A stretch of DNA of 48,405 bases from Acidobacteriota bacterium. Its GTDB lineage: Bacteria; Acidobacteriota; Thermoanaerobaculia; Gp7-AA8. The stretch's first letter is position 1. Each line of letters opens with the position of its first letter. The notes under the pieces are model-generated. The model was not told where the DNA came from. It saw only the letters and a list, made by a program, of their open reading frames with translations, and searched no databases. The position numbers were made by a program, and so were the translations under genes. The stretch is from positions 1 to 48,405 of the forward strand of contig QHVT01000033.1 in NCBI GenBank assembly GCA_003223645.1, given 5' to 3'. This document shows positions 1,851-47,710 of the stretch, piece by piece.

Positions 1851-1985
1851 CTCAGGGCTCATGGGCGCAGAGGCTCATGGGCGCACAGGCGCACAGGCTC
1901 ATGGGCTCATGGGCTCATAGACTGTGAGCCTTTGAGCCTGTGAGCCTATGAGCCTGTGCGCCTGTGAGCCTATGAGCCCGTGCCC
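1851..1985. repeat. Word-hairpin A: octamer TGAGCCTN arrays in inverted arms
   Basis: The right arm reads as consecutive octamers of the form YNTGAGCC or YGTGCGCC; the left arm is the reverse complement of the same words. Octamer variants differ at two fixed positions, and the order of variants differs between arms, so it is not one simple inverted duplication. It fills the whole gap between two divergent genes and ends directly at the DUF309 start codon. Confidence 0.85.
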
Positions 1986-5442: not shown

Positions 5443-5886
5443 ATGGAAGACGTCACGATCACCCCTGCGAAGGCGACCGATGTCGATGCGATCAAATCGA
5501 TCCTCGTCGCGAACGATCTTCCGACCGATGGCGTGGACGATCACTGGAAGACGTTTCTCATCGCACGCGACGGAGACACGGTCGTCGGCTGCGGCGGCGC
5601 GGAGGCATACCAATTCGCGGCGCTCATCCGCTCGGTGGCGGTGATGCCGCAATATCGTAGTCACGGGATCGGACGGAAGCTCGTCCGTCAACTCCTGGAC
5701 CGTCTTGCGTCGCGCGGCCTGCGCGAGTTTTATCTGCTGACGACGACGGCCGAGGAGTACTTTCGCAAACGCGGATTCAAGCCGATCGATCGCGATGAAG
5801 TGCATCCGCAGCTCCTCGGCTCGCGCGAATTTCAGGGCGCGTGTCCCGACACCGCGGTCTGCATGCGACTGGTGATGCTCGTATGA
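5443..5886 (+). CDS. GNAT acetyltransferase, ArsN2-like
   Basis: 147 residues. The acetyl-CoA binding motif A is visible as VAVMPQYRSHGIGRKLV near residues 65-82. The rest (FYLLTTTAEEYFRKRGF, then SREFQGACPDTAVCM) follows the pattern of ArsN2-type acetyltransferases found in arsenic-resistance loci. Members of that group are thought to acetylate arsenicals or related compounds, but no ars genes are nearby, so the substrate is uncertain. Family C palindrome lies directly upstream. Confidence 0.75.
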   Translation: MEDVTITPAKATDVDAIKSILVANDLPTDGVDDHWKTFLIARDGDTVVGCGGAEAYQFAALIRSVAVMPQYRSHGIGRKLVRQLLDRLASRGLREFYLLTTTAEEYFRKRGFKPIDRDEVHPQLLGSREFQGACPDTAVCMRLVMLV

Positions 5887-5888
5887 CT

Positions 5889-5983
5889 GGATGGCAGATG
5901 GCGGATGGCGGATGGCGAATGCCGCCAGCTGACTGCCATCGGCCATCCGCCATCCGCCATCGGCCACTCGCCATCCGCCATCC
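5889..5983. repeat. Word-hairpin D, copy 1: GATGGCG heptamers
   Basis: The left arm has GGATGGC/AGATGGC heptamers, the right arm GCCATCC/GCCATCG. It spans the whole gap and ends at the base before the amidohydrolase ATG. Related copies are at 20800-20920 and 46216-46302. Confidence 0.85.
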
Positions 5984-6820
5984 ATGAAGATCTTCGACGT
6001 ACACGTCCACGTGCAGCCGTGGACGATGGTGAATGCCGATGCGCTGGCGATGATTGCTGAGGATCCCGCGCACGCGAATGCGAAAGACATTCTCTCGTCG
6101 CCGGACCATCTGCTGCGCTACCTCGACGAGAACGGCGTCGAGAAAATCTGCTGCATCAACTACGTCTCGCCCGACGTGATGGGATTCACGCGCGAGGTCA
6201 ACGACTGGATCGCGAACTTCACGCGCGACCATCGCGATCGTCTCGTGCCGGTCGGCTCGGTGAATCCGCTGCACGAGATGGACGTCCGCGCCGAGATCAA
6301 CCGCGTCCTCGACCTCGGCATCGGGATGATCAAGATCCATCCGCCGCACCAGCTCTTCGCGCCGAACGCGTATCGCGGCGAGCTGTGGCAGCTCGCCGAG
6401 GTGTATCGGGAGTGCGAAGTGCGCGGCGTGCCGGTCATGTTCCACACCGGAACGTCCGTCTTCCCGCGCGCGCGCAACGTGTTCGCCGACCCGATGCCGG
6501 TCGACGACGTGGCGATCGATTTTCCGAAACTGAAAATCATCCTCGCGCACGCGGGGCGGCCGCTCTACGGCGAGACTTCGCTCTTCCTCACGCGGCGGCA
6601 CGCGAACGTGTACATCGACCTCTCCGGCATCCCGCCGAAATCGCTGCCGAAATACTTTCCGCGTCTCGCGCAAGTGGCTGACAAAGTGCTGTGGGGCACC
6701 GACTGGCCGTCGATGGGCGTCGTCTCGCTGCGCAAGAACATTGACGAGCTCCGCTCGCTGAACCTCGGCGAGGAGATCGAGCAGAAGGTGTTTTGGGACA
6801 ACGCGGCGAAGTTGTTTTGA
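5984..6820 (+). CDS. Amidohydrolase family protein (TIM-barrel metal hydrolase)
   Basis: 278 residues. The metal-binding HxH appears as FDVHVHV at residues 4-10. Further His/Asp residues expected of the amidohydrolase-2 fold are seen in IHPPHQ, VMFHTGT, IILAHAG and LWGTDWPS, the last providing the catalytic Asp near the C-terminus. Relatives include decarboxylases and lactone hydrolases such as the ACMSD group, so the reaction cannot be assigned. The ATG immediately follows hairpin D with no ribosome binding site, so translation initiation must use the repeat arm as its leader. Confidence 0.85.
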   Translation: MKIFDVHVHVQPWTMVNADALAMIAEDPAHANAKDILSSPDHLLRYLDENGVEKICCINYVSPDVMGFTREVNDWIANFTRDHRDRLVPVGSVNPLHEMDVRAEINRVLDLGIGMIKIHPPHQLFAPNAYRGELWQLAEVYRECEVRGVPVMFHTGTSVFPRARNVFADPMPVDDVAIDFPKLKIILAHAGRPLYGETSLFLTRRHANVYIDLSGIPPKSLPKYFPRLAQVADKVLWGTDWPSMGVVSLRKNIDELRSLNLGEEIEQKVFWDNAAKLF

Positions 6821-6833
6821 TCGACTCCTTATA

Positions 6834-6949
6834 TGTGGTGACCGCTGCATATGTGGTGACCGCTGCCCCCAGCGGTCACAGCGCCGCCGAATGGCGGCGC
6901 CAGCGGCGCTTCGCGCCGCCGTGACCGCTGAGGGCAGCGGTCACCACAA
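6834..6949. repeat. Palindrome family E, copy 1
   Basis: TGTGGTGACCGCTGCC and GGCAGCGGTCACCACA form the outer arms. Nested inside are GGTCAC/GTGACC and GGCGCC-containing inner hairpins (GGCGGCGCC, AGCGGCGC, GCGCCGC). The left end has an extra partial repeat of TGTGGTGACCGCTGC. The second copy is at 10741-10837. Confidence 0.9.
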
Positions 6950-9184: not shown

Positions 9185-9252
9185 TGGAGTGGTGCGCGCC
9201 TCCGGCGCGCCCTGGGGGGACGGGAGGCGCGCCGGAGGCACGCACCACTCCA
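9185..9252. repeat. Palindrome family F, copy 1
   Basis: GGAGTGGTGCGCGCCTCCGG begins the left arm, and its reverse complement with one mismatch closes the right arm. The loop is about 14 bases and G-rich (CTGGGGGGACGGGA). Intergenic copy. Confidence 0.95.
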
Positions 9253-10707: not shown

Positions 10708-10908
10708 ATGGAACTCCTGCCGCTCAAGCGGCTGGGAGAATGTGGTGACCGCTGCCCTCAGCGGTCACGGCGCCGCCTCACGGCGGCGCCAGCGGCGCAT
10801 AGCGCCGCCGCGACCGCTGAGGGCAGCGGTCGCCACAAAGCTCTTGGAGATTTTTCACAACCTCTGAGAATGTGGGCATTCACAAAAGCTTTCGAGATTT
10901 CTTCATAG
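10708..10908 (+). pseudogene. Short frame interrupted by palindrome E, possible gene remnant
   Basis: After the promoter-like TATACT, the ATG opens MELLPLKRLGE and then runs straight into palindrome E (10741-10837), ending at 10908 after 66 codons. The first 11 residues may be the only native part of a gene destroyed by the palindrome and by later decay. No homologous family is recognised. It could equally be spurious. Confidence 0.25.
10741..10837. repeat. Palindrome family E, copy 2
   Basis: Same outer arms as the 6834 copy (TGTGGTGACCGCTGCCCTCA / TGAGGGCAGCGGTCGCCACA), with the same nested GGCGGCGCC hairpins and small differences in the loops. Confidence 0.9.
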
Positions 10909-20770: not shown

Positions 20771-20799
20771 GTCGCTTGCGCGTCGCGGCCACTATCACG

Positions 20800-20920
20800 G
20801 GATGGCAAACGGCAGATGGCGGATGGCAGATGGCGGATGGTAGATGGCGGATGGTAGATGGCGGATGGCGGATGGCGTCGCTTCTGCCATCCGCCATCCG
20901 CCATCTGCCATCCGTTCATG
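20800..20920. repeat. Word-hairpin D, copy 2: GATGGCG/GATGGTA heptamers
   Basis: The left arm has about ten consecutive heptamers (GATGGCA, GATGGCG, GATGGTA alternating). The right arm has only about four (GCCATCC, GCCATCT), so the arms differ in copy number. It fills the gap between divergent genes. Confidence 0.9.
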
Positions 20921-20922
20921 AT

Positions 20923-23142: not shown

Positions 23143-24534
23143 TCACGTGGGCCGAGTGAACGCTCGCCCCGCTTGCGGTCTCACGATTTCCGCGAGGTCG
23201 CGCGCGAACAGCGCGGCATCGCGCGGCTCCAGCGTCGAGATCGTGACGCGGATCGCCGGCGGCGTGGCGATGCGGTAACGCTCTCCCGCTTTCACGCCCC
23301 ACCCTTTCTTCGCGAGCTCCTGCACCGTCGCAATCTCCTCGGCCACAGGAATCCATACGTTCAATCCCGACACGCCGTGCGCATCGATACCGCGCGCGCT
23401 CAGTTCGCGCAGAAGCGCGTTGCGCCGCTCCGCATAGACGCGCTGCGCGCGCAGCGGAGCACGGTCGCGCCAGATCATGGCGACGGTGCGCTGCAGGATG
23501 TGACTGACCCAGCGGATGCCGAGGGTCTGGCGGCCTTCGACGCGCGCGTGCGTTTGCGCGTCGGAGGCTAGGAACGCGACGCGGAGGTCGGGGCCGAACG
23601 ATTTCGAGACCGAGCGGACGACCGCCCACTTCTCTCGCGCTCTCAAAGTGGAGCGGCGGCCGCTCTCGGCCGCCGGCTTCTCGCGAGAGGTCGGCGGCCG
23701 AAGCGGCCGCCGCTCCACAGGTTCGGCGACGAGCGTGCGGTACTCGGCGCCGGCGATGACACCGGCGTGGTCGTCTTCGATGACCAGCACGTCCGGACGC
23801 GCGGCGAGCAGCGCGCGCAGCTCGCGCGCGCGGCGAGCGGAGAACGCGGCGCCGGTCGGGTTCTGCGCGCGCGGCGTCGCGATGAGCGTCTTGCACGAGC
23901 GCAGCGCGCGCTTGAGCTCGGACGGAAGCAGTCCTTCGTCGTCGACAGTCACGGGAACGGCGATGAGCGCGAGCGCGTGCAGGAGATCGAGCACGCCGGT
24001 GAAGCCGGGATCTTCGACGGCGACGCGATCGCCGGAGCGGAGATGTTCGCGCAGCACGCGCTCGAGGCCGTCGAGCGCGCCGCTGACGATCGCGACGTGA
24101 TCGGCTGGAATGTTGTCGTCGCGGAACTGCTCGCGCGCGAGCGCAAGGAGCGCGGGATCATTCAGCTCATCGCCGTACAACCGCTGCGCGAGCGGCGAGC
24201 GGCGCTTGCGCAGATCGGGGAGGAGGCGCACATCCGGGTTTCCATCGACCAGGTTGTACACCCCCTCGGGGACGGCGTGTTCGAACGGCAGCACCAGCGG
24301 GGGCGCCGGACGGACGCGCGTGCCGCGGCGGCCGTCGCTCACGATCACGCCGCGCTCCTGCAGGATCCGGAACGCCGCGGCGACGGTCGCGCCGCTGACG
24401 CGGAGGTGCTGCGACAGCGCGCGGACGGTGGGCAGCGCGTCGCCGGCGGCGAGCTTTCCGCCGGCCAGCGCCGACTCCACCGAGCCGGCGATGTTGACCG
24501 CGGTCGTCCCGCTGAGGTAATTTTGTTCTAGCAT
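23143..24534 (-). CDS. MocR-type regulator: GntR HTH fused to PLP aminotransferase fold
   Basis: 463 residues. Residues 1-75 are a GntR winged helix (GGKLAAGDALPTVRALSQHL, VSGATVAAAFRILQERGV). Residues about 90-450 have the class I aminotransferase fold with PLP-site features: NPTGAAFS, LVIEDDHAG and SVSKSFGPDLR with the Schiff-base Lys. An in-frame palindrome G (23648-23718) adds about 23 residues (VERRPLRPPTSRE onward) just before that Lys segment. The divergent gene encodes a PNPOx-like protein, the classic setting of PdxR/MocR regulators that sense PLP. Fewer than 30 bases separate the starts, and an inverted repeat spans them. Confidence 0.85.
   Translation of the reverse strand: MLEQNYLSGTTAVNIAGSVESALAGGKLAAGDALPTVRALSQHLRVSGATVAAAFRILQERGVIVSDGRRGTRVRPAPPLVLPFEHAVPEGVYNLVDGNPDVRLLPDLRKRRSPLAQRLYGDELNDPALLALAREQFRDDNIPADHVAIVSGALDGLERVLREHLRSGDRVAVEDPGFTGVLDLLHALALIAVPVTVDDEGLLPSELKRALRSCKTLIATPRAQNPTGAAFSARRARELRALLAARPDVLVIEDDHAGVIAGAEYRTLVAEPVERRPLRPPTSREKPAAESGRRSTLRAREKWAVVRSVSKSFGPDLRVAFLASDAQTHARVEGRQTLGIRWVSHILQRTVAMIWRDRAPLRAQRVYAERRNALLRELSARGIDAHGVSGLNVWIPVAEEIATVQELAKKGWGVKAGERYRIATPPAIRVTISTLEPRDAALFARDLAEIVRPQAGRAFTRPT
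23648..23718. repeat. Palindrome family G, copy in the MocR-type gene
   Basis: GTGGAGCGGCGGCCGCT...and...AGCGGCCGCCGCTCCAC arms, with an inner palindrome CTTCTCGCGAGAG in the loop. It lies in frame inside the coding sequence, between the core strand region and the PLP lysine. Confidence 0.9.
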
Positions 24535-25934: not shown

Positions 25935-27080
25935 ATGGATTTTCGTCTGACCGAGGACCAGTTGCTCATCCAGCAGAGCGTGCGCGAATTCGCGGAGAGC
26001 GAGATCAAGCCGCACCTGATGGAATGGGATGAGGCGCAGCACTTTCCCGTCGACACCTTCAAGCGCGCCGGCGAGCTCGGCATGCTTGGAGTCACCTTCC
26101 CCGAGGAGTACGGCGGCGCCGGACTCTCATACGTCGACTACGTGAACGTCATCGAAGAGCTGGGCGTCGTCGACAGCGGCTTCGCGCTCAGCGTCGCCGC
26201 GCACAATTCCCTCGGCAGCGGCCACATCTACCTCGCCGGCAATGACGAGCAGAAAAAGAAATGGATGCCGAAGCTGACCACCGGCGAATGGATCGGCGCG
26301 TGGGGACTCACCGAGCCGGGATCGGGATCCGACTCCGCGGGCCTGCGCACGGTCGCGGTCAAAGACGGTGAGGACTGGGTGCTGAACGGCACGAAGAACT
26401 TCATCACCAACGCGACCTACGCCGACATCTCCGTCGTCCTCGCGATCACCGATCGCAACGATCAGAAGCGCGGCATCACCGCGTTCGCGATCGAGATGGA
26501 TCGTCCCGGCATTCGTCCCGGCAAGAAAGAGAACAAGCTCGGCATGCGCGTCTCCGACACCGCGGAGCTGGTGCTCGAGGATTGCCGCGTCCCGTCCGCC
26601 AACATCCTCGGCGAAATCGGACACGGATTCATCGACGCGATGAGAGTCCTCGACGGCGGCCGCATCTCCATCGGCGCGCTCGCCGTCGGCATCGCGCGCG
26701 GCGCATACGAAGCGGCCCGCGACTACTCGAAACAGCGGCAGGCGTTCGGCAAGCCGATCTCCGATTTTCAGGCGATCCAGTTCATGCTCGCCGACATGGC
26801 GACCGAGATCGAAGCCGCGCGACTGCTCTGTCATCGCGCCGCGACGGTCAAAGACGCCGGCGAAAAGGTGACGCAGTTCTCCGCGATGGCGAAGCTCTAC
26901 GCGTCCGAAGTCGCCGTGCGCGCGACGGAGAAAGGCGTGCAGATCTTCGGCGGCTACGGCTTCATCAAAGAGTTCCCCGCCGAAAAGTACTACCGCGACG
27001 TGAAGCTCTGCACGATCGGCGAAGGCACGAGCGAGATTCAGCGGATGGTGATTGCGCGGAACATCCTCGCCGGCAATTAG
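25935..27080 (+). CDS. Acyl-CoA dehydrogenase
   Basis: 381 residues of normal family length. Visible are the FAD/substrate motif WGLTEPGSGSD near residue 122, the KNFITNATYAD segment, and the catalytic Glu region LCTIGEGTSEIQRMVIARN near the end. Acyl-CoA dehydrogenases oxidise acyl-CoA to enoyl-CoA, passing electrons to ETF. It is most like short- or medium-chain or branched-chain enzymes, but the substrate is not settled by sequence. MeaB, which supports methylmalonyl-CoA mutase, follows 93 bases downstream, separated by word-hairpin K1; propionate or branched-chain amino-acid breakdown would fit. Confidence 0.92.
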   Translation: MDFRLTEDQLLIQQSVREFAESEIKPHLMEWDEAQHFPVDTFKRAGELGMLGVTFPEEYGGAGLSYVDYVNVIEELGVVDSGFALSVAAHNSLGSGHIYLAGNDEQKKKWMPKLTTGEWIGAWGLTEPGSGSDSAGLRTVAVKDGEDWVLNGTKNFITNATYADISVVLAITDRNDQKRGITAFAIEMDRPGIRPGKKENKLGMRVSDTAELVLEDCRVPSANILGEIGHGFIDAMRVLDGGRISIGALAVGIARGAYEAARDYSKQRQAFGKPISDFQAIQFMLADMATEIEAARLLCHRAATVKDAGEKVTQFSAMAKLYASEVAVRATEKGVQIFGGYGFIKEFPAEKYYRDVKLCTIGEGTSEIQRMVIARNILAGN

Positions 27081-27086
27081 AAGCGA

Positions 27087-27170
27087 TGAACGCAGAACGC
27101 AGAGCGCAGAACGTAGAACGTAGAAATCGTTCTCAATTCTGCGTTCTGCGCTCTGCGTTCTGCGTTCAAT
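27087..27170. repeat. Word-hairpin K, copy 1: GAACGCA heptamers
   Basis: Heptamers GAACGCA, GAGCGCA, GAACGTA on the left, and TTCTGCG/CTCTGCG words on the right. It fills the gap between two codirectional genes and ends three bases before the MeaB start. Copies at 31447 and 42541. Confidence 0.85.
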
Positions 27171-27173
27171 CGA

Positions 27174-28097
27174 ATGCCTGATCTCTCCACCCCCCGCGCC
27201 CTCGGCCAGGCCATCTCCCTGATCGAGTCCGCCGATCCCCGCGCCGAGGACCTTCTCGCGCAGATCTATCCCCAAACCGGCCGCGCGCGCATCCTCGGCA
27301 TCACCGGCTCGCCCGGCGCCGGCAAGTCGACGCTCGTCGCGGCGCTGGCGAAGCACTATCGCAAAGAGGACAAGCGCGTCGGCATCATCGCCGTCGATCC
27401 GACGTCGCCGTTCACCGGCGGCGCGATCCTCGGCGATCGCATCCGCATGGCCGAGCTCTACACCGATCGCAACGTCTTCATCCGCTCCATGGCCACGCGC
27501 GGGTTTCTGGGCGGACTCGCGAAGGCGACGAATGACGCGGTCGATGTTCTCGACGCCGCGGGCTTCGACGTCGTGCTCGTCGAGACCGTCGGCGTCGGAC
27601 AGGACGAAGTCGAAGTCGTGCGCACCGTGCAGACGAATGTCGTCATCCTCGTTCCCGGCATGGGCGACGACATCCAGGCCATCAAGGCCGGGATCATGGA
27701 GATCGGCGACGTCTTCGTCGTCAACAAAGCGGACCGCCCCGGCGCCGACAAGACCGTCACCGAAGTCACGATGATGATGTCGCTCGTCGAAGAGCACGGC
27801 GACTGGATTCCGCCGATCGTGAAGACCGTCGCGTCGAAGTCGCAGGGCGTCGACGAGCTCGACGCCGCGATTCAGAAGCATTACGACTACCTGCAGTCGT
27901 CCGGCGAGCTCGATCGCCGCAATCGCGACCGCGTGCGCATCCGCATCGAGACGCAGCTCAAGGAGCGCTTCATGGACCGCCTCATCGGCGGCACCATTCC
28001 GCGCGCGGAGTACGAGGAGCTGCTCGAAGACGTCCTGCGCAAGCGCAACAACCCGCACGACGCCGCGGAGAGCGTGTTGAAGCGCGTCACGTTCTGA
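27174..28097 (+). CDS. meaB: Methylmalonyl-CoA mutase-associated GTPase MeaB
   Basis: 307 residues. The G domain shows ILGITGSPGAGKSTLVAAL (Walker A) near residue 42, VGIIAVDPTSPFTGGAILGDRIRM, SMATRGFLGGL, LVETVGVGQDEVEV, and VFVVNKADRPGADKT. This is the MeaB/ArgK signature. The protein chaperones adenosylcobalamin loading and protects methylmalonyl-CoA mutase, so B12-dependent propionyl-CoA metabolism is expected, though no mutase gene is in the window. The ATG follows hairpin K1 and has no ribosome binding site. Confidence 0.93.
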   Translation: MPDLSTPRALGQAISLIESADPRAEDLLAQIYPQTGRARILGITGSPGAGKSTLVAALAKHYRKEDKRVGIIAVDPTSPFTGGAILGDRIRMAELYTDRNVFIRSMATRGFLGGLAKATNDAVDVLDAAGFDVVLVETVGVGQDEVEVVRTVQTNVVILVPGMGDDIQAIKAGIMEIGDVFVVNKADRPGADKTVTEVTMMMSLVEEHGDWIPPIVKTVASKSQGVDELDAAIQKHYDYLQSSGELDRRNRDRVRIRIETQLKERFMDRLIGGTIPRAEYEELLEDVLRKRNNPHDAAESVLKRVTF

Positions 28098-28482: not shown

Positions 28483-28569
28483 TAGGACGAATAGGACGCA
28501 TAGGACGGATAAGACAGATAGGACGTCCTATCTGTCCTATGCGTCTTATCTGTCCTATCTGTCCTATCC
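28482..28569. repeat. Word-hairpin L: AGGACGNAT nonamers
   Basis: Left arm nonamers AGGACGAAT, AGGACGCAT, AGGACGGAT and AAGACAGAT; the right arm read in reverse complement gives AGGACAGAT, AGGACAGAT, AAGACGCAT, AGGACAGAT. Both arms draw on related words (including one AAGAC form each) but in a different order. It lies between convergent genes. Confidence 0.9.
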
Positions 28570-28945: not shown

Positions 28946-29662
28946 TCACTCCCACATCACCAGAAATTTTCTTGCTTCGACCGCCTCGGCGGAATCGGGC
29001 GCGGTGTCGATTACGCGCTGCAGATAGCTCTTGGCGACGTCGAGGCGTCCCGCGCGCTGCGCCGACAGGCCGAAGCGCAACAGCGCCGCGGGTGCGTCGG
29101 GATGCGCCTTCAGGTAGTCGAGGTACGCGCGGCCGGCGCCCTGCAGATCGCCGCGCCGCTCGCGCAGCGCGCCGATGTAGAGCAGCGCGGCGTCGAGTTT
29201 CGGCTCGAGCGTCAGCGCGCGGGTGAGCCACGTCTCCGCATCGGCGGTGCGTCCGAGGCGATCGAGGGCGACGCCGTTGTGATACGCGGCGTCCGCGCGC
29301 AGCGACGACGTTTCGTCCGCGAAGATTTTCTCGAATTCCGGCGAAGCCTTCGCGGCTTCGCCTGCGCGCAAGAGCGTGAGCGCGCGATTGAATCGCGCTT
29401 CGATGAGCGCCGGCTGCAGTTTCAGCGCGGCGTCGAAGCTCGCCAGTGCTTTCGCATTGTCGCCCTTCAGCAGCAGCGCGAGTCCGCGCAGATTCTCGAC
29501 TTCGGCCGGCGACGCGCCGGATGTCTTCGCGCCTTCGAGCTGATGCAACGCCGCGTCGTATTGGCCGCGGAGGATGTAGTAGACGGAACGATCGCAGGCG
29601 GTCGGAGTGGTGCGCGCCTCCGGCGCGCCTCCGCCCGCAGGCGCGCCGGAGGCGCGCACCAC
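28946..29662 (-). CDS. Secreted TPR-repeat protein carrying palindrome F at its N-terminus
   Basis: At least 238 residues with about five TPR units (GQYDAALHQLEGAK, GDNAKALASFDAALKLQP, GRTADAETWLTRALTLEP, GDLQGAGRAYLDYLKAHP, GRLDVAKSYLQRVI). GTG 29662 lies inside palindrome F. The frame stays open upstream to CTG 29704, which overlaps the HD-GYP stop (CTGA) and would add RRRAVALLIVSLG, a plausible signal peptide; F then encodes VVRASGAPAGGG at the cleavage region. The true start is therefore uncertain. It is probably a periplasmic scaffold made together with the HD-GYP protein. Confidence 0.65.
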   Translation of the reverse strand: MVRASGAPAGGGAPEARTTPTACDRSVYYILRGQYDAALHQLEGAKTSGASPAEVENLRGLALLLKGDNAKALASFDAALKLQPALIEARFNRALTLLRAGEAAKASPEFEKIFADETSSLRADAAYHNGVALDRLGRTADAETWLTRALTLEPKLDAALLYIGALRERRGDLQGAGRAYLDYLKAHPDAPAALLRFGLSAQRAGRLDVAKSYLQRVIDTAPDSAEAVEARKFLVMWE

Positions 29663-29665
29663 TCC
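29604..29665. repeat. Palindrome family F, copy 2 (signal-peptide region of TPR gene)
   Basis: Perfect 26-base arms (GGAGTGGTGCGCGCCTCCGG...) and a 10-base loop. At 62 bases it is not a multiple of three, unlike the copies in hemW and the glycosyltransferase. Confidence 0.9.
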
Positions 29666-31431: not shown

Positions 31432-31438
31432 CGGAGAG

Positions 31439-31444
31439 ATTATA
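31439..31444 (-). promoter_or_regulatory. -10 box TATAAT, leaderless promoter of the HD-GYP operon
   Basis: A perfect TATAAT on the minus strand, followed by CTCTCCG and the start codon. It abuts word-hairpin K2. Confidence 0.55.
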
Positions 31445-31446
31445 AG

Positions 31447-31533
31447 GAACGCAGAACGCAGAGCGCAGAACGAAGAGTGAGAACGAACGCGGATTTCTAA
31501 GCTCTTCATTCTGCGTTCTCTCGTTCTGCGTTC
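31447..31533. repeat. Word-hairpin K, copy 2: GAACGCA heptamers
   Basis: GAACGCAGAACGCAGAGCGC begins the left arm; TTCTGCG words form the right. It occupies the gap between the divergent HD-GYP and hemW genes, and its last base touches the hemW ATG. Confidence 0.85.
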
Positions 31534-32670
31534 ATGCCTCTCTCCATCTACGTCCACCTCCCTTTCTGCACGCAACACTGCACCTATTGTCCCTTTGCGA
31601 TCTCGACGGATCTCGCGCTGCAGGATGAATACATCGACGCGCTCCTGCGCGAGATCGATGGAGTGGTGCGCGCCTCCGGCGCGCCTTTGGGCGAGAGGCG
31701 CGCCGGAGGCGCGCACCACTCCATCGACAGCATCTACCTCGGCGGCGGCACGCCGTCGCGCACGAGCATCGCCAATCTCTCGCGACTCTTTGCGCGACTG
31801 CGCGAGCGATTCGACGTCCGCGACGATGCGGAGATCTCGATGGAGGCGAACCCCGAGGATGTCGATGCGGATGCGCTCGCGCGCTGGCGCGCGCTCGGCG
31901 TGAATCGCGTGTCGATCGGCGTGCAGTCGTTTCACGACGATGAGCTGCGGGCGATCAGCCGCGTGCACGATCGCGCGCGCGCGATCGCTGCCGTGCGCGC
32001 GGCCGTCGGCAGCGGGATGCGCACGAATCTCGATCTCATCCTGGGACTTCCTGCGCAAACGCCGGAGTCCTTTCGCGAGACACTCGATCTCGCCGTGTCT
32101 CTCGGTGCGGGACATCTCTCGCTCTACATGCTCGACCTCGAAGAGAAAACGCCGCTGCAGGTGCAGGTCGAGCGCGGGCGCGTCGCGCTTCCCGAAGACG
32201 AGTCGGTCGCCGCGCTGTATGAAGAAGCGATCATCCGGCTCGATGCTGCGGGGCTGCATCAATACGAGATCAGCAACTTCGCGCGCGACGGGGAAGTGTG
32301 CAGACACAACCTCCGCTACTGGACGCGCGGCGAGTATCACGGCTTCGGGCTCGCCGCGCATTCGTTCATCGGCGACGAGCGATTCGCGAACACTCGCGAC
32401 ATCCGCCGCTACATCGCGGAGTCGCCGAACGCGCGCGATTTCTCGGAAACGCTCGGCGCCGGCGAGGCGCGGCGGGAGACACTCTTTCTCCGTCTGCGCC
32501 AAACCTCCGGCATACTCTATGAAGACCTGGTCGGACTTTGCGGACAGGAGGGCATTGCATGGACGGAGCGCGGAATCGAGGACGGGTGGCTGCGGAGGGT
32601 GGACGGACGCGTCGCGTTCACGCCCCAAGGCTTTCTGCAAAGCAACGATTTCATCTCGCAGCTTTTCTGA
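31534..32670 (+). CDS. hemW: Radical SAM heme chaperone HemW with in-frame palindrome insert
   Basis: 378 residues. The radical SAM cluster Cys12, Cys16, Cys19 (CTQHCTYC), IYLGGGTPS, ANPEDVD, VNRVSIGVQSFHDDEL, and LGLPAQTPESF all match the HemN/HemW family; LHQYEISNFAR and CRHNLRYW near 250-270 are typical of HemW. It binds heme and delivers it to proteins. Residues 43-63 (GVVRASGAPLG...GAHHS) are encoded by palindrome F and sit between the first helix and the IYLGGGTPS strand, where family members have a short loop. The gene follows hairpin K2 without a ribosome binding site. The last 112 bases overlap the next gene in another frame. Confidence 0.92.
   Translation: MPLSIYVHLPFCTQHCTYCPFAISTDLALQDEYIDALLREIDGVVRASGAPLGERRAGGAHHSIDSIYLGGGTPSRTSIANLSRLFARLRERFDVRDDAEISMEANPEDVDADALARWRALGVNRVSIGVQSFHDDELRAISRVHDRARAIAAVRAAVGSGMRTNLDLILGLPAQTPESFRETLDLAVSLGAGHLSLYMLDLEEKTPLQVQVERGRVALPEDESVAALYEEAIIRLDAAGLHQYEISNFARDGEVCRHNLRYWTRGEYHGFGLAAHSFIGDERFANTRDIRRYIAESPNARDFSETLGAGEARRETLFLRLRQTSGILYEDLVGLCGQEGIAWTERGIEDGWLRRVDGRVAFTPQGFLQSNDFISQLF
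31655..31727. repeat. Palindrome family F, copy 3 (inside hemW, in frame)
   Basis: Arms extend to TCGATGGAGTGG...CCACTCCATCGA. The core is 63 bases (21 codons), so the hemW frame is preserved. It encodes GVVRASGAPLG then ERRAGGAHHS. Confidence 0.95.
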
Positions 32671-40032: not shown

Positions 40033-40098
40033 GGAGTGGTGCGCGCCTCCGGCGCGCCTTTGGGGGATGGGAGGCGCGCCGGAGGCGCGCACCACTCC
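40033..40098. repeat. Palindrome family F, copy 4 (between E1 alpha and E1 beta)
   Basis: Perfect 26-base arms and a 14-base loop (66 bases). It makes up most of the 88-base gap between the two co-transcribed subunit genes. Confidence 0.95.
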
Positions 40099-41101: not shown

Positions 41102-41226
41102 GGTGAAAGGAAAAAGGTGAAAGGTAAAAGTACGCTGCGCGCATTCGCGCGATTTTTGCTCGAACCCCCAAGCGGGCGTTCAGGCGGAGCCACTTTCACC
41201 TTTGTCCTTTTCCCTTTCACCTTTGC
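41102..41226. repeat. Word-hairpin N: GTGAAAG heptamers
   Basis: Left GTGAAAG, GAAAAAG, GTGAAAG, GTAAAAG words; right CTTTCAC, CTTTGTC, CTTTTCC, CTTTCAC. The loop of about 65 bases has its own small palindrome (GCGCGCATTCGCGCG). It lies between E1 beta and E2. Confidence 0.85.
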
Positions 41227-41249
41227 TTGCGAGAACTGAGCGAATCACC

Positions 41250-42518
41250 ATGCCCGAAATAATCATGCCGAAGATGGGCGACGCGATGACCGAGGGAAAG
41301 GTCGTCAAGTGGTACAAACAGCCGGGCGATCGCGTGAAGAAGGGGGAGGCGGTCGCGGAGATCGAGACGGACAAAGTGAATCTCGATCTCGAAGCCGAGG
41401 CGGACGGAACGCTCGGCGAGCAGGCCGCGAAAGAAGGCGACATGGTTCCGGTCGGCGGCGTGCTCGCGAAAATCCTCGGCGAAGGCGAGAAGGAAGAGAA
41501 GAAAGACGAAGCGCCGCAACGTCGGGTAACGGACAAGAAGGACTCGGTCAAGCACACGACCGGCGAGTATCACGAAGCGATCGAGCAAAAGGGACCGCGG
41601 CGCGATCTCGCGCAAAACGTGGTCGCGATGCCCGCGGCAAGCGAAGGCGGACGGCGGAAATCCTCGCCGCTCGCGCGCAAGATGGCCGCCGAGATGGGCG
41701 TGAGCCTCGAGCAGGTGCAGGGGAGCGGTCCGCGCGGAAGAATCGTCGCGGCGGACATCAAGAAAACCAGTGGAGCGGCGGCCGCTTCGGCCGCCGAATT
41801 CTCGCGAAAACCGGCGGCCGAAGCGGCCGCCGCTCCACTGGAAACGAAAATCATCCCGCTCACCGCGATGCGCCGCACGATCGCGAAGCGACTCGCCGAG
41901 TCGACCGGCCCGATCCCGCACTTCTATCTCACGGCCGATTTCGACGTTACGAATCTCGCGGCAATGCGCCAGCAGTTGCTCGACATCAGCGGCGCGAAGC
42001 TGAGCCTCAACGACTTCATCATCCGCGCCGTCGCGCTCGCGCTGCGCCATCACCCGAACGTGAACGCGAGCTGGGGCGATGACGCGATCACGCAGCATGG
42101 TGAAGTGCACGTCGGCGTCGCCGTCGCCACCCCGGAAGGACTGATCACGCCCGTCATTCGCAATGCCGATCAGAAATCGGTCGTCGACATTGCGTCCGAG
42201 GTGCGCGCGCTCGCGGACAAAGCGAAGAACCGCAAACTCAAACCGGACGAATATCAGGGCTCGACCTTCACGATCTCCAACCTCGGCGCATGGGGCATCG
42301 AAGAATTCACCGCGATCATCAACCCGCCGAACGCCGCCATCCTCGCCATCGGCGCAGCGGAATCGCGTCCGGTCGTGATCGACAAACAAATCGTCATCCG
42401 CGAGCGGATGAAAGTGACGATGTCGTGCGATCACCGGATCGTGGACGGCGCGCTCGGCGCAGAGTTTTTGAAGACGTTGCGCCAGTACATCGAGCAGCCG
42501 TTGCGCTTGTTCGTGTGA
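41250..42518 (+). CDS. Dihydrolipoamide acyltransferase E2 with palindrome-encoded linker
   Basis: 422 residues. A lipoyl domain (residues 1-78) carries Lys in EIETDKVNLD. An E3-binding domain (about 136-172) has SPLARKMAAEMGV and GSGPRGRIVAADI. A catalytic domain follows with SCDHRIVDGALGAEF (HxxxDG) near the C-terminus. It passes the acyl group from lipoyl to CoA. Between the E3-binding and catalytic domains, palindrome G encodes SGAAAASAAEF...PAAEAAAAPL in frame, i.e. an Ala-rich linker much like the usual Ala/Pro-rich linkers of E2 proteins. A single lipoyl domain is present. ATG 41250 has GAGAA upstream but no strong site. Confidence 0.93.
   Translation: MPEIIMPKMGDAMTEGKVVKWYKQPGDRVKKGEAVAEIETDKVNLDLEAEADGTLGEQAAKEGDMVPVGGVLAKILGEGEKEEKKDEAPQRRVTDKKDSVKHTTGEYHEAIEQKGPRRDLAQNVVAMPAASEGGRRKSSPLARKMAAEMGVSLEQVQGSGPRGRIVAADIKKTSGAAAASAAEFSRKPAAEAAAAPLETKIIPLTAMRRTIAKRLAESTGPIPHFYLTADFDVTNLAAMRQQLLDISGAKLSLNDFIIRAVALALRHHPNVNASWGDDAITQHGEVHVGVAVATPEGLITPVIRNADQKSVVDIASEVRALADKAKNRKLKPDEYQGSTFTISNLGAWGIEEFTAIINPPNAAILAIGAAESRPVVIDKQIVIRERMKVTMSCDHRIVDGALGAEFLKTLRQYIEQPLRLFV
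41767..41841. repeat. Palindrome family G, copy inside E2 gene
   Basis: CCAGTGGAGCGGCGGCCGCT...AGCGGCCGCCGCTCCACTGG arms, with loop GAATTCTCGCGAAAACC. It lies in the linker-coding part of the gene. Confidence 0.95.
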
Positions 42519-42540: not shown

Positions 42541-42653
42541 GAACGCAGAACGCAGAGCGCAGAACGAAGAATTGAGAAGCACGCTCGCCCATGACGCGGA
42601 GCGCGGTGGGCGGGTTTCTTCCTTCTGCATTCTGACTTCTGCGTTCTGAATTC
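42541..42653. repeat. Word-hairpin K, copy 3: GAACGCA heptamers
   Basis: GAACGCAGAACGCAGAGCGC begins the left arm, as in copies 1 and 2, and the loop is longer and GC-rich (about 60 bases). The right arm is more degenerate (CTTCTGCATTCTGACTTCTG). The rest of 42654-42729 shows nothing but the promoter region. Confidence 0.8.
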
Positions 42654-42731
42654 CGTGCCGGTGCACGCGAATCACGCTACGCAGCTCAACACTTTCAACC
42701 CATGCGAGAAGCAATTCGTCCCTTTGTTTGT

Positions 42732-43530: not shown

Positions 43531-45039
43531 TGGGTTCTCGCGAGCATTTCCGGCGTTCTCTTCGCGCTCTCGTTCCCGAACGCCGCCATCGGCTGGCTCG
43601 CGTTCATCGCGCTGGTGCCGCTGCTCGTCGCGATCACCAACGCGCGCAGCGCGTGGGAAGCGTTCTTCGTAGGCTGGCTGTCGCAGACGATCGCCTGGCT
43701 GATGATGGTGCCGTGGGTGATCCGCGTGATGTCGCATTACGGTGGACTGCCCGAGCTCACCGGCATCCTGCTTTTCGTCGCGATGTGTCTCATCCTCGGC
43801 CTGTACGGCGGCTTGTTCGCGGCGATCATGAAACGCCTGCGGCTCGGCACGCGCTTCGCGCCGTGGCTCGTCGTGCCGCTGGCGTGGGCGGCGGTCGAGT
43901 ACGCGCGCACGTATCTCCTCAGCGGATTCCCGTGGAACCTCCTCGCGACGGCGATCGTCGACTACACGCCGCTGATTCAAATCGATCGCTTCGGCGGCCC
44001 GTACTTTGTCGGGGCGCTGATTCTGATTCCGTGCACGATTGCCGCGTGGTGGATCACGCAGCGTCCGCCGTCGATCGCGCGTGTGCTCGCCGGCGGCGCG
44101 ATCGGGATTCTCGCGCTGACGTGGTGGGGGACGGGACTCGTCGCGTCGAAGCTGCTCGGGCGCTCGAGCGATGCGCCGGTGCTGATGGCCGCGCTGCTGC
44201 AGCCGAACATCTCGCAGGAGATGCGCTGGGACGAAGCGAACGTGATGGCGATCTATCAGCGGATGATCGCGATGACGGAAGAAGCGGCGGATCACGGCGC
44301 GAATGTCGTGATCTGGCCGGAGTCGACGGTCCCGCTCTCGTTCACGGAGACGCATTTCTTCAAAGACGCGATCGAGCAGATCTCGCGCGAGCGCAAGATC
44401 GACATCATCCTCGGCTCCGTTGCAACCGATCCCGCGCGTCCGAATCGTCTGTGGAACTCCGCGTTCCTCGTCAGCAACGGCGTCACGATCGGACACTACG
44501 ACAAGATCCGGCTCGTGCCGTTCGGCGAGTACGTTCCGCTGCGGCGCGTGCTCTTCTTCGCAAAGAAGCTCGTCCATGCCGTCGGCACGTTCGAGTTCGG
44601 CACGAACGACTTTCCGCTGGCCGGCAAAATGAAATACGGCCCGGCGATCTGCTACGAGATCGTCTATCCGCAGATCCCGCGCGAGCAGATTCGCCACGGC
44701 GCGCAAGTGCTCGTCACGATCACGAACGACGCGTGGTACGACGGGACGGCCGCGCCCGCGCAGCATCTCTGGCAGGCGCGCCTCCGCGCCGTCGAAACCG
44801 ATCGCTACCTGCTACGCGCGGGAACGACCGGCATCTCCGCATTCATCGATCCGACGGGCCAGATCCGCGAGTCGCTTCCAATGGGCCGCACGGGAATCAT
44901 CTACGCGCTGTTTCAGTCTCATACGTGGACGACGTCCTACGTCCGCTTCGGGGATTGGTTTGCGTGGGGAAGCGTGGTCGTGGTACTCATCGGATTGGTA
45001 CGAATGAAGGCAGAAGGCAGAAGGCAGAAGGCAGAATGA
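43459..45039 (+). CDS. lnt: Apolipoprotein N-acyltransferase Lnt with repeat-encoded ends
   Basis: 526 residues from GTG 43459. About six transmembrane helices occupy residues 25-215 (WVLASISGVLFALSFPNAAIG, WLAFIALVPLLVAI), then a nitrilase-type domain with Glu in VVIWPESTVPL, Lys in HYDKIRLVPFGEYVP and Cys in AICYEIVYPQ, the Glu-Lys-Cys triad. It adds the third acyl chain to lipoproteins at the inner membrane. The first 24 or so residues come from palindrome C (RDPASSRGIN) rather than native sequence, and the last, MKAEGRRQKAE, from word-hairpin O. The native start codon seems to have been replaced. No ribosome binding site is clear. Confidence 0.92.
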   Translation: MRPSTVGNPSAGVTRDPASSRGINWVLASISGVLFALSFPNAAIGWLAFIALVPLLVAITNARSAWEAFFVGWLSQTIAWLMMVPWVIRVMSHYGGLPELTGILLFVAMCLILGLYGGLFAAIMKRLRLGTRFAPWLVVPLAWAAVEYARTYLLSGFPWNLLATAIVDYTPLIQIDRFGGPYFVGALILIPCTIAAWWITQRPPSIARVLAGGAIGILALTWWGTGLVASKLLGRSSDAPVLMAALLQPNISQEMRWDEANVMAIYQRMIAMTEEAADHGANVVIWPESTVPLSFTETHFFKDAIEQISRERKIDIILGSVATDPARPNRLWNSAFLVSNGVTIGHYDKIRLVPFGEYVPLRRVLFFAKKLVHAVGTFEFGTNDFPLAGKMKYGPAICYEIVYPQIPREQIRHGAQVLVTITNDAWYDGTAAPAQHLWQARLRAVETDRYLLRAGTTGISAFIDPTGQIRESLPMGRTGIIYALFQSHTWTTSYVRFGDWFAWGSVVVVLIGLVRMKAEGRRQKAE

Positions 45040-45106
45040 AGAAGTCGTGATTTGGCGTCCGCCACCTCTTACTTCTGCCTTCTGCCTTCTGCCCTCTGCC
45101 TTCATA
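45005..45106. repeat. Word-hairpin O: GAAGGCA heptamers
   Basis: Four GAAGGCA heptamers on the left and GCCTTCT words on the right, with a loop of about 45 bases. The left arm overlaps the lnt C-terminal codons (EGRRQKAE). Confidence 0.9.
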
Positions 45107-45111
45107 CGACG

Positions 45112-46216
45112 ATGAAAGACGACACTCCTTTCCGCATCGACTCCCTCCGCGAACGAATCAGCTCCGTCCGGAGCTATCTTTGACCTAGCCTCGGCGAGAC
45201 GGGCGCTCGACGAGATCGAGCGCGAGATGTCCGTGCCCGGCTTTTGGGATCGTCCCGAAACGGCGCAGGAGACTGGACGCAAGCGCGCGCGCGTCGAGAA
45301 GCGCATCCAGTCCGGCCAGTCGATCGATTCGAAGTCGGAAGAGCTCGACGTGTTGCTCGATCTGCAGCGCGAAGGCGAGAGCGTCGACGGAGACATCGAG
45401 TCGCTCATCGATCAGCTCGAGCGCGAAGTCACCGACATCGAGCTGACGATGAAGCTCTCCGGCGAGCACGATCTGCGCGATGCCATCATCACGATCCATC
45501 CCGGCGCCGGCGGCACGGAGTCGCAGGATTGGGCGGAGATGATGCTGCGCATGTACCTCCGCTACTGCGAGCGCAAGGGTTGGTCGACGGAGCTCCTCGA
45601 GTATCAGGCCGGCGAAGAGGCGGGACTCAAGAGCGCAACGGCGTTGGTGCGCGGCGACTACGCGTTCGGCTATCTGAAGGTGGAGAACGGCGTCCACCGC
45701 TTGGTGCGCATCTCGCCGTTCGATGCCGCGAAGCGGAGACACACGTCGTTTGCGTCGGTGTTCGTGATCCCCGACATCGACGACACGATCCATATCGAGA
45801 TCAACGACAAGGACCTGCGCGTCGACACGTATCGTTCTTCGGGCGCGGGCGGACAGCATGTCAACGTGACCGACTCCGCGGTGCGCATCACGCACCTGCC
45901 GACGAACATCGTCGTGACGTGCCAGAACGAGCGCAGCCAGCACAAGAACCGCGACGTCGCCATGCGCCTCCTTCGCGCGCGGCTGTATCAACTGGAGCTG
46001 GACAAGCGCAAGGAAGAGCAGGCCAAGGTCGAAGGGGAGAAGAAAGACATCGGCTTCGGCAGCCAGATCCGCTCGTACGTGCTGCAGCCGTATCAGCTCG
46101 TGAAGGATTTGCGGACGGGATACGAAGTTGGCGATCCGTCGCGCATCCTCGACGGCGATCTCGACGGATTCATCGAGGCCTTTCTCGCGGCGCAGGCGCG
46201 GAAGACGGCGGATTAG
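45112..46216 (+). CDS. prfB: Peptide chain release factor 2, programmed +1 frameshift
   Basis: ATG 45112 opens 23 codons ending CTT TGA C at 45178-45184. As in most bacteria, RF2 is made only when ribosomes shift +1 at this UGA, reading CTT and then GAC from 45182. The upstream CCGGAGC about three bases before CTT serves as the stimulating Shine-Dalgarno-like element. The full product is about 367 residues: SPF motif VRISPFDAAKRRHTSF (RF2-specific stop codon reading) and GGQ in RSSGAGGQHVNVTDS. It recognises UGA and UAA and frees the peptide. The usual feedback applies: low RF2 raises shifting. Confidence 0.95.
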
Positions 46217-46302
46217 ATGGCGGATGGCAGATGGCAGACGGCAGCCACGGACGAGCAGTCGCTTCGTGAATCGCCATCCGCCATCCGCCATCCGCCATCG
46301 GC
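46216..46302. repeat. Word-hairpin D, copy 3: overlapping a gene start
   Basis: GATGGCGGATGGCAGATGGC on the left and GCCATCCGCCATCCGCC words on the right, with a loop of about 30 bases. The first ATG of the left arm is the only usable start for the glycosyltransferase that follows. Confidence 0.9.
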
Positions 46303-47710
46303 GAAGATCGCGGTTCTCACGCCGTTGCCTCCCGCCCGCACCGGCGTCGCGCACTACGCATCGATGCTCATCCCCGCGCTCGCGAAGCGCGCGGACGTGC
46401 GCGCGTTCGACGCATCGCCCGGAGTGGTGCGCGCCTCCGGCGCGCTTTTGGGGGACGGGACGCGCGCCGAAGGCGCGCACCACTCGATCGATACGTATCG
46501 CCGCGACGACTTCGATCACGTGATCTATCACCTCGGCAACAATCCGCATCACGAGTGGGTGTACGCGGAAGCGATGCGCGAGCCGGGCGTGATCGTGCTG
46601 CACGACCTGGTGCTGCACCACCTCATCGTCGAGATGACGCTCGCGCGCGGCGACGTCGAGGGATACGTCAGCGCGCTGCGCGCGAATCACGGAGAGGCAG
46701 GCGCGGCGTGGGCGCGCGGACGGGCGGCGGGGCTGCACAGCGAGATGGGCAACTTTCTCCTGCCCGCGTCGATCGAGATTGCGAATCGATCGAAGAGCGT
46801 CATCGTCCACAACCACTACGCGCGCGAGCGTCTGCAATCGTTCGGCGTCACGACGCCGATTCATGTCGTGCCGCATCCGTACGTGCACGCCGAACCCGCT
46901 CCCGTCCAACGCTCGCCGGAAAAGCGCGTGATCGGTTTCTTCGGCTTTCTCACGTCGGCCAAGCGGGCGGAAGTCGTGCTCGAAGCGTTTCGCATCGCGC
47001 GCGAGCTCGATCCGCGGCTCGAGTTGCTGATCGTCGGACAACCCGCGCCGAACATCGCGCTGCCGGAAGGGGAGGGAATCATCACCACCGGCTACGTCGC
47101 CGACGAAGACTTCCCCGCCTACTACGCGGCAGCGGACCGGCTCGTGAATCTGCGCTATCCGTCCGCCGGCGAAACGTCCGGCACACTGATCCGCGCGCTC
47201 GATGCGGGAAAGCCGGTGGCGGTCAGCGACTACGCGCAATTCGCGGAACTGCCCGACGAGATCGCAGTGAAGATCCCATTCGACCGCGAGATCGAGGCGC
47301 TGGCCGATTTCTTCTTGCGCGACATCCCCGATCCCTCACGAGCGCAGCGAGAGTGGCTGGAGAGAAACGCTTCGCTGGACTTGACGGTGGACGGCTATTT
47401 GAACGCATTGCATGGTGAAGCGGCCGCCGCTCCACTTTTTCCGCAACTCGAGCTCGTCGCAGCGACGACGAACGCGATCGTCGTCCGTAACATCGGCGAC
47501 TCCACCATCCCCACCCGCACCTACGGCACTCCCGAATATCGGCTCATCGCCAACGATCGCTGGCTCGCACTGCCGTGCGATCTCGCGCCCGGCGCGACTG
47601 CCACGATCGATGTGCACCTCGACGAAGGCCCGCTGCGCCTCTATCACGCGCTGCAGGACGTGCCGATGCTGCCGCCGGAGCCTTTTGCATGTTCGACGAT
47701 CACGCGCTGA
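46217..47710 (+). CDS. Glycosyltransferase family 4-like protein with three repeat inserts
   Basis: 497 residues. The core is GT4-like: KIAVLTPLPPARTGVAHYASML at the start, HLGNNPHHEWVYAEAM, VIVLHDLVLHH, ANRSKSVIVHNHYARERLQ, then RVIGFFGFLTSAKRAEVVLEAF, LLIVGQPA, GYVADEDFPAYYAAAD and SAGETSGTLIRALDAGKPVAVSD. Residues 1-28 come from word-hairpin D, about 69-90 (GVVRASGALLG...GAHHS) from palindrome F in frame, and about 401-406 (EAAAAP) from half of palindrome G. The start codon lies inside the repeat. It likely transfers a sugar in surface-glycan synthesis, donor unknown. It overlaps the Nudix gene by 22 bases. Confidence 0.8.
   Translation: MADGRWQTAATDEQSLRESPSAIRHPPSAKIAVLTPLPPARTGVAHYASMLIPALAKRADVRAFDASPGVVRASGALLGDGTRAEGAHHSIDTYRRDDFDHVIYHLGNNPHHEWVYAEAMREPGVIVLHDLVLHHLIVEMTLARGDVEGYVSALRANHGEAGAAWARGRAAGLHSEMGNFLLPASIEIANRSKSVIVHNHYARERLQSFGVTTPIHVVPHPYVHAEPAPVQRSPEKRVIGFFGFLTSAKRAEVVLEAFRIARELDPRLELLIVGQPAPNIALPEGEGIITTGYVADEDFPAYYAAADRLVNLRYPSAGETSGTLIRALDAGKPVAVSDYAQFAELPDEIAVKIPFDREIEALADFFLRDIPDPSRAQREWLERNASLDLTVDGYLNALHGEAAAAPLFPQLELVAATTNAIVVRNIGDSTIPTRTYGTPEYRLIANDRWLALPCDLAPGATATIDVHLDEGPLRLYHALQDVPMLPPEPFACSTITR
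46421..46485. repeat. Palindrome family F, copy 5 (inside glycosyltransferase, in frame)
   Basis: Slightly degenerated arms (GGAGTGGTGCGCGCCTCCGG and CCGAAGGCGCGCACCACTC). The core is 66 bases, preserving the frame. Confidence 0.92.
47417..47435. repeat. Half palindrome G inside the glycosyltransferase
   Basis: GAAGCGGCCGCCGCTCCAC is one arm of family G, encoding EAAAAP near the C-terminal quarter of the protein. Confidence 0.6.

What the first reader, a model, noticed from the sequence alone, without database searches (positions are those of the whole stretch)
31655..31727. Palindrome F inserted in frame in hemW
Exactly 21 codons (GVVRASGAPLG...GAHHS) lie between the first helix and the conserved IYLGGGTPS strand, where HemW proteins have a short loop. 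The arms are perfect and the frame is kept. This is the behaviour of Rickettsia palindromic elements, which insert in coding genes, but in an unrelated high-GC lineage.
Basis: partly seen in the sequence, partly recalled or inferred. Interest (0 to 1): 0.8.

Follow-up and report, generated by a model that had tools for sequence, protein, structure and literature searches.

The report
Mobile DNA hairpins translated inside proteins
A bacterial genome of the phylum Acidobacteriota carries a recently multiplied family of short mobile DNA hairpins that have inserted in frame into dozens of genes, so that ordinary enzymes such as HemW, glycerol kinase and TilS carry an extra loop of about 20 residues that their relatives lack.

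Summary
A 63-nt inverted doublet (31660-31722) adds 21 codons to hemW; none of 27 aligned relatives has it. About 7 codons of the old loop are missing, so the net gain over the nearest relative is 14 codons. The doublet belongs to a genome-wide family: 211 REP-like arms here, none in the same-genus genome (3 mismatches allowed) and none in 395 sampled genomes of the phylum (2 allowed). Of 88 sites examined, 71 are inverted doublets (REPIN architecture) and 50 lie in frame in 49 genes. A strict flank test gives 32 frame-kept doublets against 1 frame-changed. 37 of 41 in-gene doublets enter in one codon phase, giving GVVRASGAP. At 9 doublet sites with a usable ortholog, 7 lack 6-26 nt of target; no duplication exceeds 2 nt. 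A second REPIN family, which flanks the only RAYT transposase found, also sits in frame in genes. Best reading: a REPIN-like selfish element, translated as a floppy linker, working like Rickettsia palindromic elements. In-gene REPs are already in print; the in-gene share, phase bias and target loss are what is new. Translation itself is inferred.

The parts
31660..31722 (+). Family F inverted doublet inside hemW (codons 43-63, GVVRASGAPLGERRAGGAHHS)
   Evidence: absent from 27 aligned HemW
31534..32670 (+). hemW host gene (378 aa)
   Evidence: AlphaFold2 model mean pLDDT 92.5, residues 53-60 below 50
46421..46486 (+). Family F doublet in frame near the start of a glycosyltransferase-type ORF (46217-47707)
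   Evidence: PF13692, 44.6 bits; left-flank codon score is weak
41770..41838 (+). Family A doublet in frame in the linker of a 2-oxoacid dehydrogenase E2-type gene (41202-42518)
   Evidence: it falls between the E3_binding and 2-oxoacid_dh domains
9186..9251 (.). Family F doublet, intergenic
29604..29665 (.). Family F doublet, intergenic
40033..40098 (.). Family F doublet, intergenic
23693..23718 (-). Family A arm, flanks not coding on both sides

Best explanation
The palindrome is one copy of a REPIN-like selfish miniature element: two inverted REP-like hairpins of about 25 nt around a short spacer, multiplied recently in this species. SHOWN: it is inserted DNA that relatives lack; the family has hundreds of arms; in-gene copies keep the reading frame; entry phase and length class are biased in genes. 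INFERRED: it is translated as a flexible surface linker of about 20 residues; copies that changed the frame, or that would be read in the Trp/Cys-bearing or Arg-rich frames, were mostly removed by selection, so the survivors are tolerated decoration rather than a functional domain. INFERRED, weaker: it moves in trans by the RAYT found in this genome or by an unseen relative, and its insertion replaces a few to about 26 nt of target instead of duplicating it.
For: 211 arm matches, control 0; 0 in the same-genus genome at up to 3 mismatches; 1 of 396 phylum genomes, the own one, at up to 2. 71 inverted doublets among 89 entries for 88 sites. 50 sites in frame in 49 ORFs. Strict flank test: doublets 32 same frame, 1 different. 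Phase 0 in 37 of 41 in-gene doublets, binomial p 5e-14. Length 2 mod 3 in 32 of 41 in-gene against 13 of 30 other doublets (Fisher p 0.006). 64 of 71 doublets have no stop in any of six frames. All 12 copies with an ortholog of 50% identity or more are absent from it, and GlpK (two copies), TilS and GGT are empty in the relatives aligned. Target loss of 6-26 nt at 7 of 9 doublet sites; 282 of 301 background positions show no length change (Fisher p about 1e-7). Model of HemW: confident core, insert 53-60 below pLDDT 50. A RAYT is present, NF047646, 103.5 bits, cut-off 80.
Against: No RNA or protein data. The RAYT is flanked by family A, not by family F. Target loss rests on one 60-75% identical reference for most sites, in loops that vary in length; 2 of 9 sites show none. 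At undisturbed control positions 98 of 3193 also score as same strand, different frame, so the strict test is not error-free. One search found one 3-mismatch match in G002, where the control also gave one.
Confidence: 0.8

Rival explanations
1. The insert is removed from the mRNA, or the ribosome hops over it (as with byps of yeast mitochondria; recalled, seen only in a search listing), so the protein is unchanged.
For: The insert is a very stable hairpin. One REPIN paper speculates that RAYT might excise REPINs from mRNA (passage).
Against: Removal or hopping needs neither a kept frame nor a fixed phase; the doublets show 32 to 1 and 37 of 41, and 64 of 71 have no stop in any frame.
Confidence: 0.05
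2. The insert is a useful peptide module kept by positive selection, for instance a linker or interaction motif.
For: The same peptide recurs in 37 of 41 in-gene doublets.
Against: Host genes are unrelated. The same sequence sits in 18 sites with no spanning gene, and in-gene doublets are not commoner than random coding positions (32 of 71 against 1720 of 3193, p 0.15). The insert in HemW is modelled as disordered.
Confidence: 0.1
3. Assembly or binning artefact.
For: The named near relatives are metagenome-assembled genomes, and reads could not be seen.
Against: Both flanks of the aligned copies continue the same gene in the same frame. Unique flanks surround each of 88 sites. Elements of 57-71 nt are shorter than common reads (recalled).
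Confidence: 0.03
4. Insertion is by ordinary clean strand transfer, and the missing target bases are unrelated loop-length variation.
For: Two of 9 doublet sites show no loss (-1 and -2), and the GGT linker varies among relatives.
Against: Seven of 9 sites lost 6-26 nt, while 16 of 301 background positions differ by 2 codons or more; GlpK site 2 and hemW are shorter than every relative aligned once the insert is discounted.
Confidence: 0.35

Closest known systems
REP sequences and REPINs with RAYT transposases (PMC3116915, passages; PMC3733652, sections 15, 16 and part 1 of 17)
   Same: A roughly 25-nt hairpin unit, inverted doublets, hundreds of arms, no target duplication, a RAYT in the genome. 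PMC3733652 reports REPs inside ORFs, more than 50% of these inserts dimers or groups encoding 20-30 residues, and a Verrucomicrobia family tagged GTGG.
   Different: REPs are described as mostly intergenic (PMC3116915: 14 16-mers overlapping genes, of 1,067). Here 50 of 88 sites are in frame in genes, with a phase bias and target loss. Family F itself does not flank the RAYT.
Rickettsia palindromic elements (through passages of PMC10969869 and PMC3733652; the original papers were not held)
   Same: Selfish palindromes inserted in frame in many unrelated genes with a recurring peptide.
   Different: RPEs are given as about 150 bp and lie in a reduced intracellular genome. Family F is about 62 nt, GC-rich, and the genome is 6.4 Mb.
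Coding palindromes of Nematomorpha mitochondria (PMC6649704, passages)
   Same: Inverted repeats translated inside genes.
   Different: There the arms encode conserved residues of the protein; here the repeat is foreign dispersed DNA.

Membership tests
REPIN (inverted REP doublet) | Short hairpin unit of about 20-40 nt | tested here: met
   7-bp stem with TCC loop in a single arm, -10.1 kcal/mol, z -2.9
REPIN (inverted REP doublet) | Units organised as inverted doublets | tested here: met
   71 doublets among 89 entries for 88 sites
REPIN (inverted REP doublet) | High copy number | tested here: met
   211 arms
REPIN (inverted REP doublet) | GTAG-type unpaired tag at one end | tested here: inconclusive
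   GTGG lies before the stem but inside a longer conserved end (GAGTGG); GTGG as a GTAG variant is in PMC3733652
REPIN (inverted REP doublet) | Flanks a RAYT gene | tested here: not met
   The one RAYT found is flanked by family A; family A meets this feature, family F does not
REPIN (inverted REP doublet) | Predominantly extragenic | tested here: not met
   50 of 88 sites in frame in genes, 18 with no spanning gene
Rickettsia palindromic element | In-frame insertion in many unrelated protein genes | tested here: met
Rickettsia palindromic element | Sequence homology to an RPE family | not tested
   No RPE sequence was fetched; the claim is 'works like', not 'is'
Rickettsia palindromic element | Protein product with the insert is made | not testable with these tools
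   No proteome for this organism

The most novel reading that the evidence does not exclude
REPIN-type elements of this lineage insert by replacing a short, variable stretch of target, perhaps by an end-joining or cut-and-fill route (three Ku matches are present) rather than clean strand transfer. Because the lost length varies, in-frame outcomes are frequent enough for one burst to decorate some 1% of the proteins with the same linker, and in-gene copies record at near base level an insertion footprint that intergenic REPINs cannot show.
Probability: 0.35. Interest if true: 0.75.

Novelty: new variant of a known kind. Interest (0 to 1): 0.62.

Why it matters
It shows Rickettsia-style invasion of proteins by selfish palindromes in a large, GC-rich genome that is not reduced, at dozens of sites including GlpK (twice), TilS, RecF, NuoN and a 2-oxoglutarate dehydrogenase. 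Because the copies are young and sit in conserved genes, they let one read what a REPIN-like insertion does to its target, and they form a natural library of tolerated loop insertions in enzymes.

Tried and rejected
Rfam gave no match in the window at gathering thresholds. A clean 21-codon insertion in hemW was rejected because the residual loop (8 residues) is shorter than in all 27 relatives (14-24). Target-site duplication was looked for: of 71 doublets 57 have none, 5 have 1 nt, 9 have 2 nt. The complementary flanks at hemW were taken as host sequence (2 of 71 doublets). The one frame-changed doublet (C44 65409) lies beside a predicted gene end. The GGT site (apparent loss 50 nt) was left out of the footprint count because its linker varies among relatives, as were two single-arm copies (h11, h33). 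Two sites with 44% and 39% identical homologs (h09, h41) read by eye as a loss of 2 and 14 nt and were not counted. Hosts whose best G001 match was under 50% identity, or that had none, were dropped before the count: 12 of 50 copies remained. The background of 301 positions includes five values of -114, an alignment artefact. One search used a miscounted background (12 of 296); one search repeats the test with 11 of 296 and with 16 of 301. Entry C41 31421/31429 is one site listed twice, so the 8 same-frame single-arm entries may count it twice. Pfam at 1e-10 found nothing on the RAYT protein; PF01797 matches it at 3e-7. Papers: PMC3733652 passages, sections 15 and 16 whole, section 17 part 1 of 2; PMC3116915, PMC10969869, PMC6649704, PMC8049555 passages only. 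Ogata 2002 was not held. Searches for in-print cases; none listed a paper on in-gene palindromes in this class, in an open-licence library only.

Full report
The feature. Window 31660-31722 is a 63-nt inverted doublet: arm GGAGTGGTGCGCGCCTCCGGCGCGC, an 13-nt spacer, and the exact reverse complement of the arm. A single arm forms its own 7-bp hairpin with a TCC loop; the whole folds as a perfect stem. It lies in hemW as codons 43-63.

Relatives. A HemW-type match was found in 40 of 40 genomes searched, own included. Of the loci fetched, 27 homologs were aligned and none has the insert. Between E40 and G70 the window has 29 residues, the relatives 14-24. Of 23 homologs from public genomes 22 have 15-23 residues there and one has 28. 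The nearest, G001, agrees in contig length and position with JAFATB010000025.1, an Acidobacteriota metagenome-assembled genome; two other near ones are named Thermoanaerobaculia. The class of the own genome is inferred from these.

A family. The arm occurs 211 times in the own genome at up to 3 mismatches, control 0. Among 40 genomes (own included) at the same setting only G002 has another match, one, with a control of one; at up to 2 mismatches only the own genome of 396 in a phylum sample matches. The place list stops at 100, so I took the copies listed there and with their flanks and parsed 89 entries for 88 sites: 71 doublets and 18 single-arm entries, many of the latter with a decayed second arm.

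In genes. With a codon score trained on the same loci, 50 of the 88 sites lie in frame in 49 ORFs; 43 of the 50 have at least 60 residues on both sides, and 11 ORFs run off the fetched stretch. Of the other 38, 18 have no spanning predicted gene and 20 do, many of these near a gene end. In a stricter test on 180-nt flanks, doublets give 32 same-frame, 1 different-frame, 2 opposite-strand, 35 not coding on both sides, 1 at an edge; single-arm entries give 8, 0, 1 and 9. Random positions in the same loci give 1720, 98, 128 and 1247. So in-gene doublets are not detectably rarer than coding positions (32 of 71 against 1720 of 3193, p 0.15), yet frame changes, two thirds of what random insertion would give, are nearly absent. 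Entry phase is 0 in 37 of 41 in-gene doublets, giving GVVRASGAP; the other phases give EWCAPPAR and SGARLRRA. Lengths of 2 mod 3, ending in EARTTP, make up 32 of 41 in genes against 13 of 30 elsewhere. Hosts over the cut-off of at least one model: GlpK (two copies), RecF, NuoN, TilS and a multifunctional 2-oxoglutarate dehydrogenase. Below cut-off, or by Pfam only: a dehydroquinase/shikimate dehydrogenase-type fusion, gamma-glutamyltransferase, an oligopeptidase A-type peptidase, a UvrD-type helicase, a sigma-54 activator, ABC transporters and others. Of 49 host genes 17 were put to family models.

Empty sites and footprint. 12 of the 50 in-frame copies have a G001 ortholog of 50% identity or more in what I held of G001 (38% of its genome plus loci); all 12 are empty there. 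Nine are doublets at alignable sites. Element length minus net length change is 6 (TilS), 26, 8, 21 (hemW), -2, 18, -1, 8 and 17 nt (the last two GlpK). At random positions of the same alignments 282 of 301 show no change. Alignments with 5 relatives for GlpK and 12 for TilS show the sites empty. The unit may include one more base at each end, since base -1 is T or C in 64 of 71 and base +1 is A in 42 of 71; that would raise each loss by 2.

Transposase. One Y1_Tnp match is present in the own genome; its ORF is a REP-associated tyrosine transposase by NF047646, with what I read by eye as an HUH and a tyrosine motif (labels recalled). It is flanked by doublets of family A, and a family A unit forms the end of its ORF. 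Family A has 233 arms here, 178 in G006, 17 (all with 2 or 3 mismatches) in G002 and none in the other 17 of 20 genomes, G001 included; G001 has no Y1_Tnp match, but G005 and G009 have 15 and 14 without family A arms, so the link of A to one RAYT type is by position, not by count. Of 14 family A copies given to the flank test 12 were classified and 7 are same-frame. One is in the window (41770-41838), in the linker of an E2-type acyltransferase. Another shares its gene with a family F copy, and G001 lacks both; it was the only one of 7 family A hosts with a match in the G001 stretches. Family C (window 6853, 10742) gave 3 same-frame of 8, the other 5 not coding on both sides.

Structure. AlphaFold2 on 24 sequences gives HemW mean pLDDT 92.5; the first helix runs to residue 48 and residues 53-60 are below 50. 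HemN (1olt) aligns with 11 fewer residues there.

Reading. A REPIN-like selfish doublet that works like a Rickettsia palindromic element. Insertion, recency, copy number, frame keeping and phase bias are shown; translation, neutrality, removal of bad insertions by selection and mobilisation by the RAYT are inferred. Target replacement is supported at 7 of 9 sites but needs same-species empty alleles. The genome has three Ku matches, which makes an end-joining route possible and proves nothing. In-gene REP doublets encoding 20-30 residues are in print (PMC3733652), so the kind is known; the in-gene share, the phase bias and the footprint are the new parts.

Noticed in passing
window 41770-41838: A family A REPIN sits in frame in the linker between the E3-binding and catalytic domains of an E2-type acyltransferase.
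   Followed up: partly
L060 1423-1968 and 1870-2200: The only RAYT found ends in a family A repeat unit that supplies its last residues, followed by two further doublets in tandem.
   Followed up: partly
G000 C6 176749-178323 (L069, L235): Glycerol kinase carries two separate family F insertions, both in frame.
   Followed up: yes
L009, C29 317650 and 317992: One membrane-protein gene carries both a family A and a family F insertion; the same-genus ortholog lacks both.
   Followed up: partly
G000 C22:61259, C23:73566, C23:74371 (L321-L323): Three Ku matches in one genome.
   Followed up: no
intergenic family F sites: 15 doublets with no spanning gene: 10 are 66-67 nt, against 3 of 41 in genes; several start 6-9 nt past a predicted gene end. 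There may be two subfamilies by spacer.
   Followed up: partly
window 6851-6949 and 10740-10838: A third palindrome family (TGTGGTGACCGCTG...), two 99-nt copies 91% alike, with related arms elsewhere in the genome.
   Followed up: partly
window 5882-5992, 20793-20922, 46201-46309; also 27074-27175, 31433-31484, 42541-42654, 45001-45111: Intergenic arrays of short words (GGATGGC; GAACGCAGA) that run into their own reverse complements, making large hairpins of another kind.
   Followed up: no
window 1855-1983 and 28483-28566: Imperfect 8-nt repeat array (GGGCTCAT...) that turns into its reverse complement, and a 42-nt imperfect inverted repeat of TAGGACG words.
   Followed up: no
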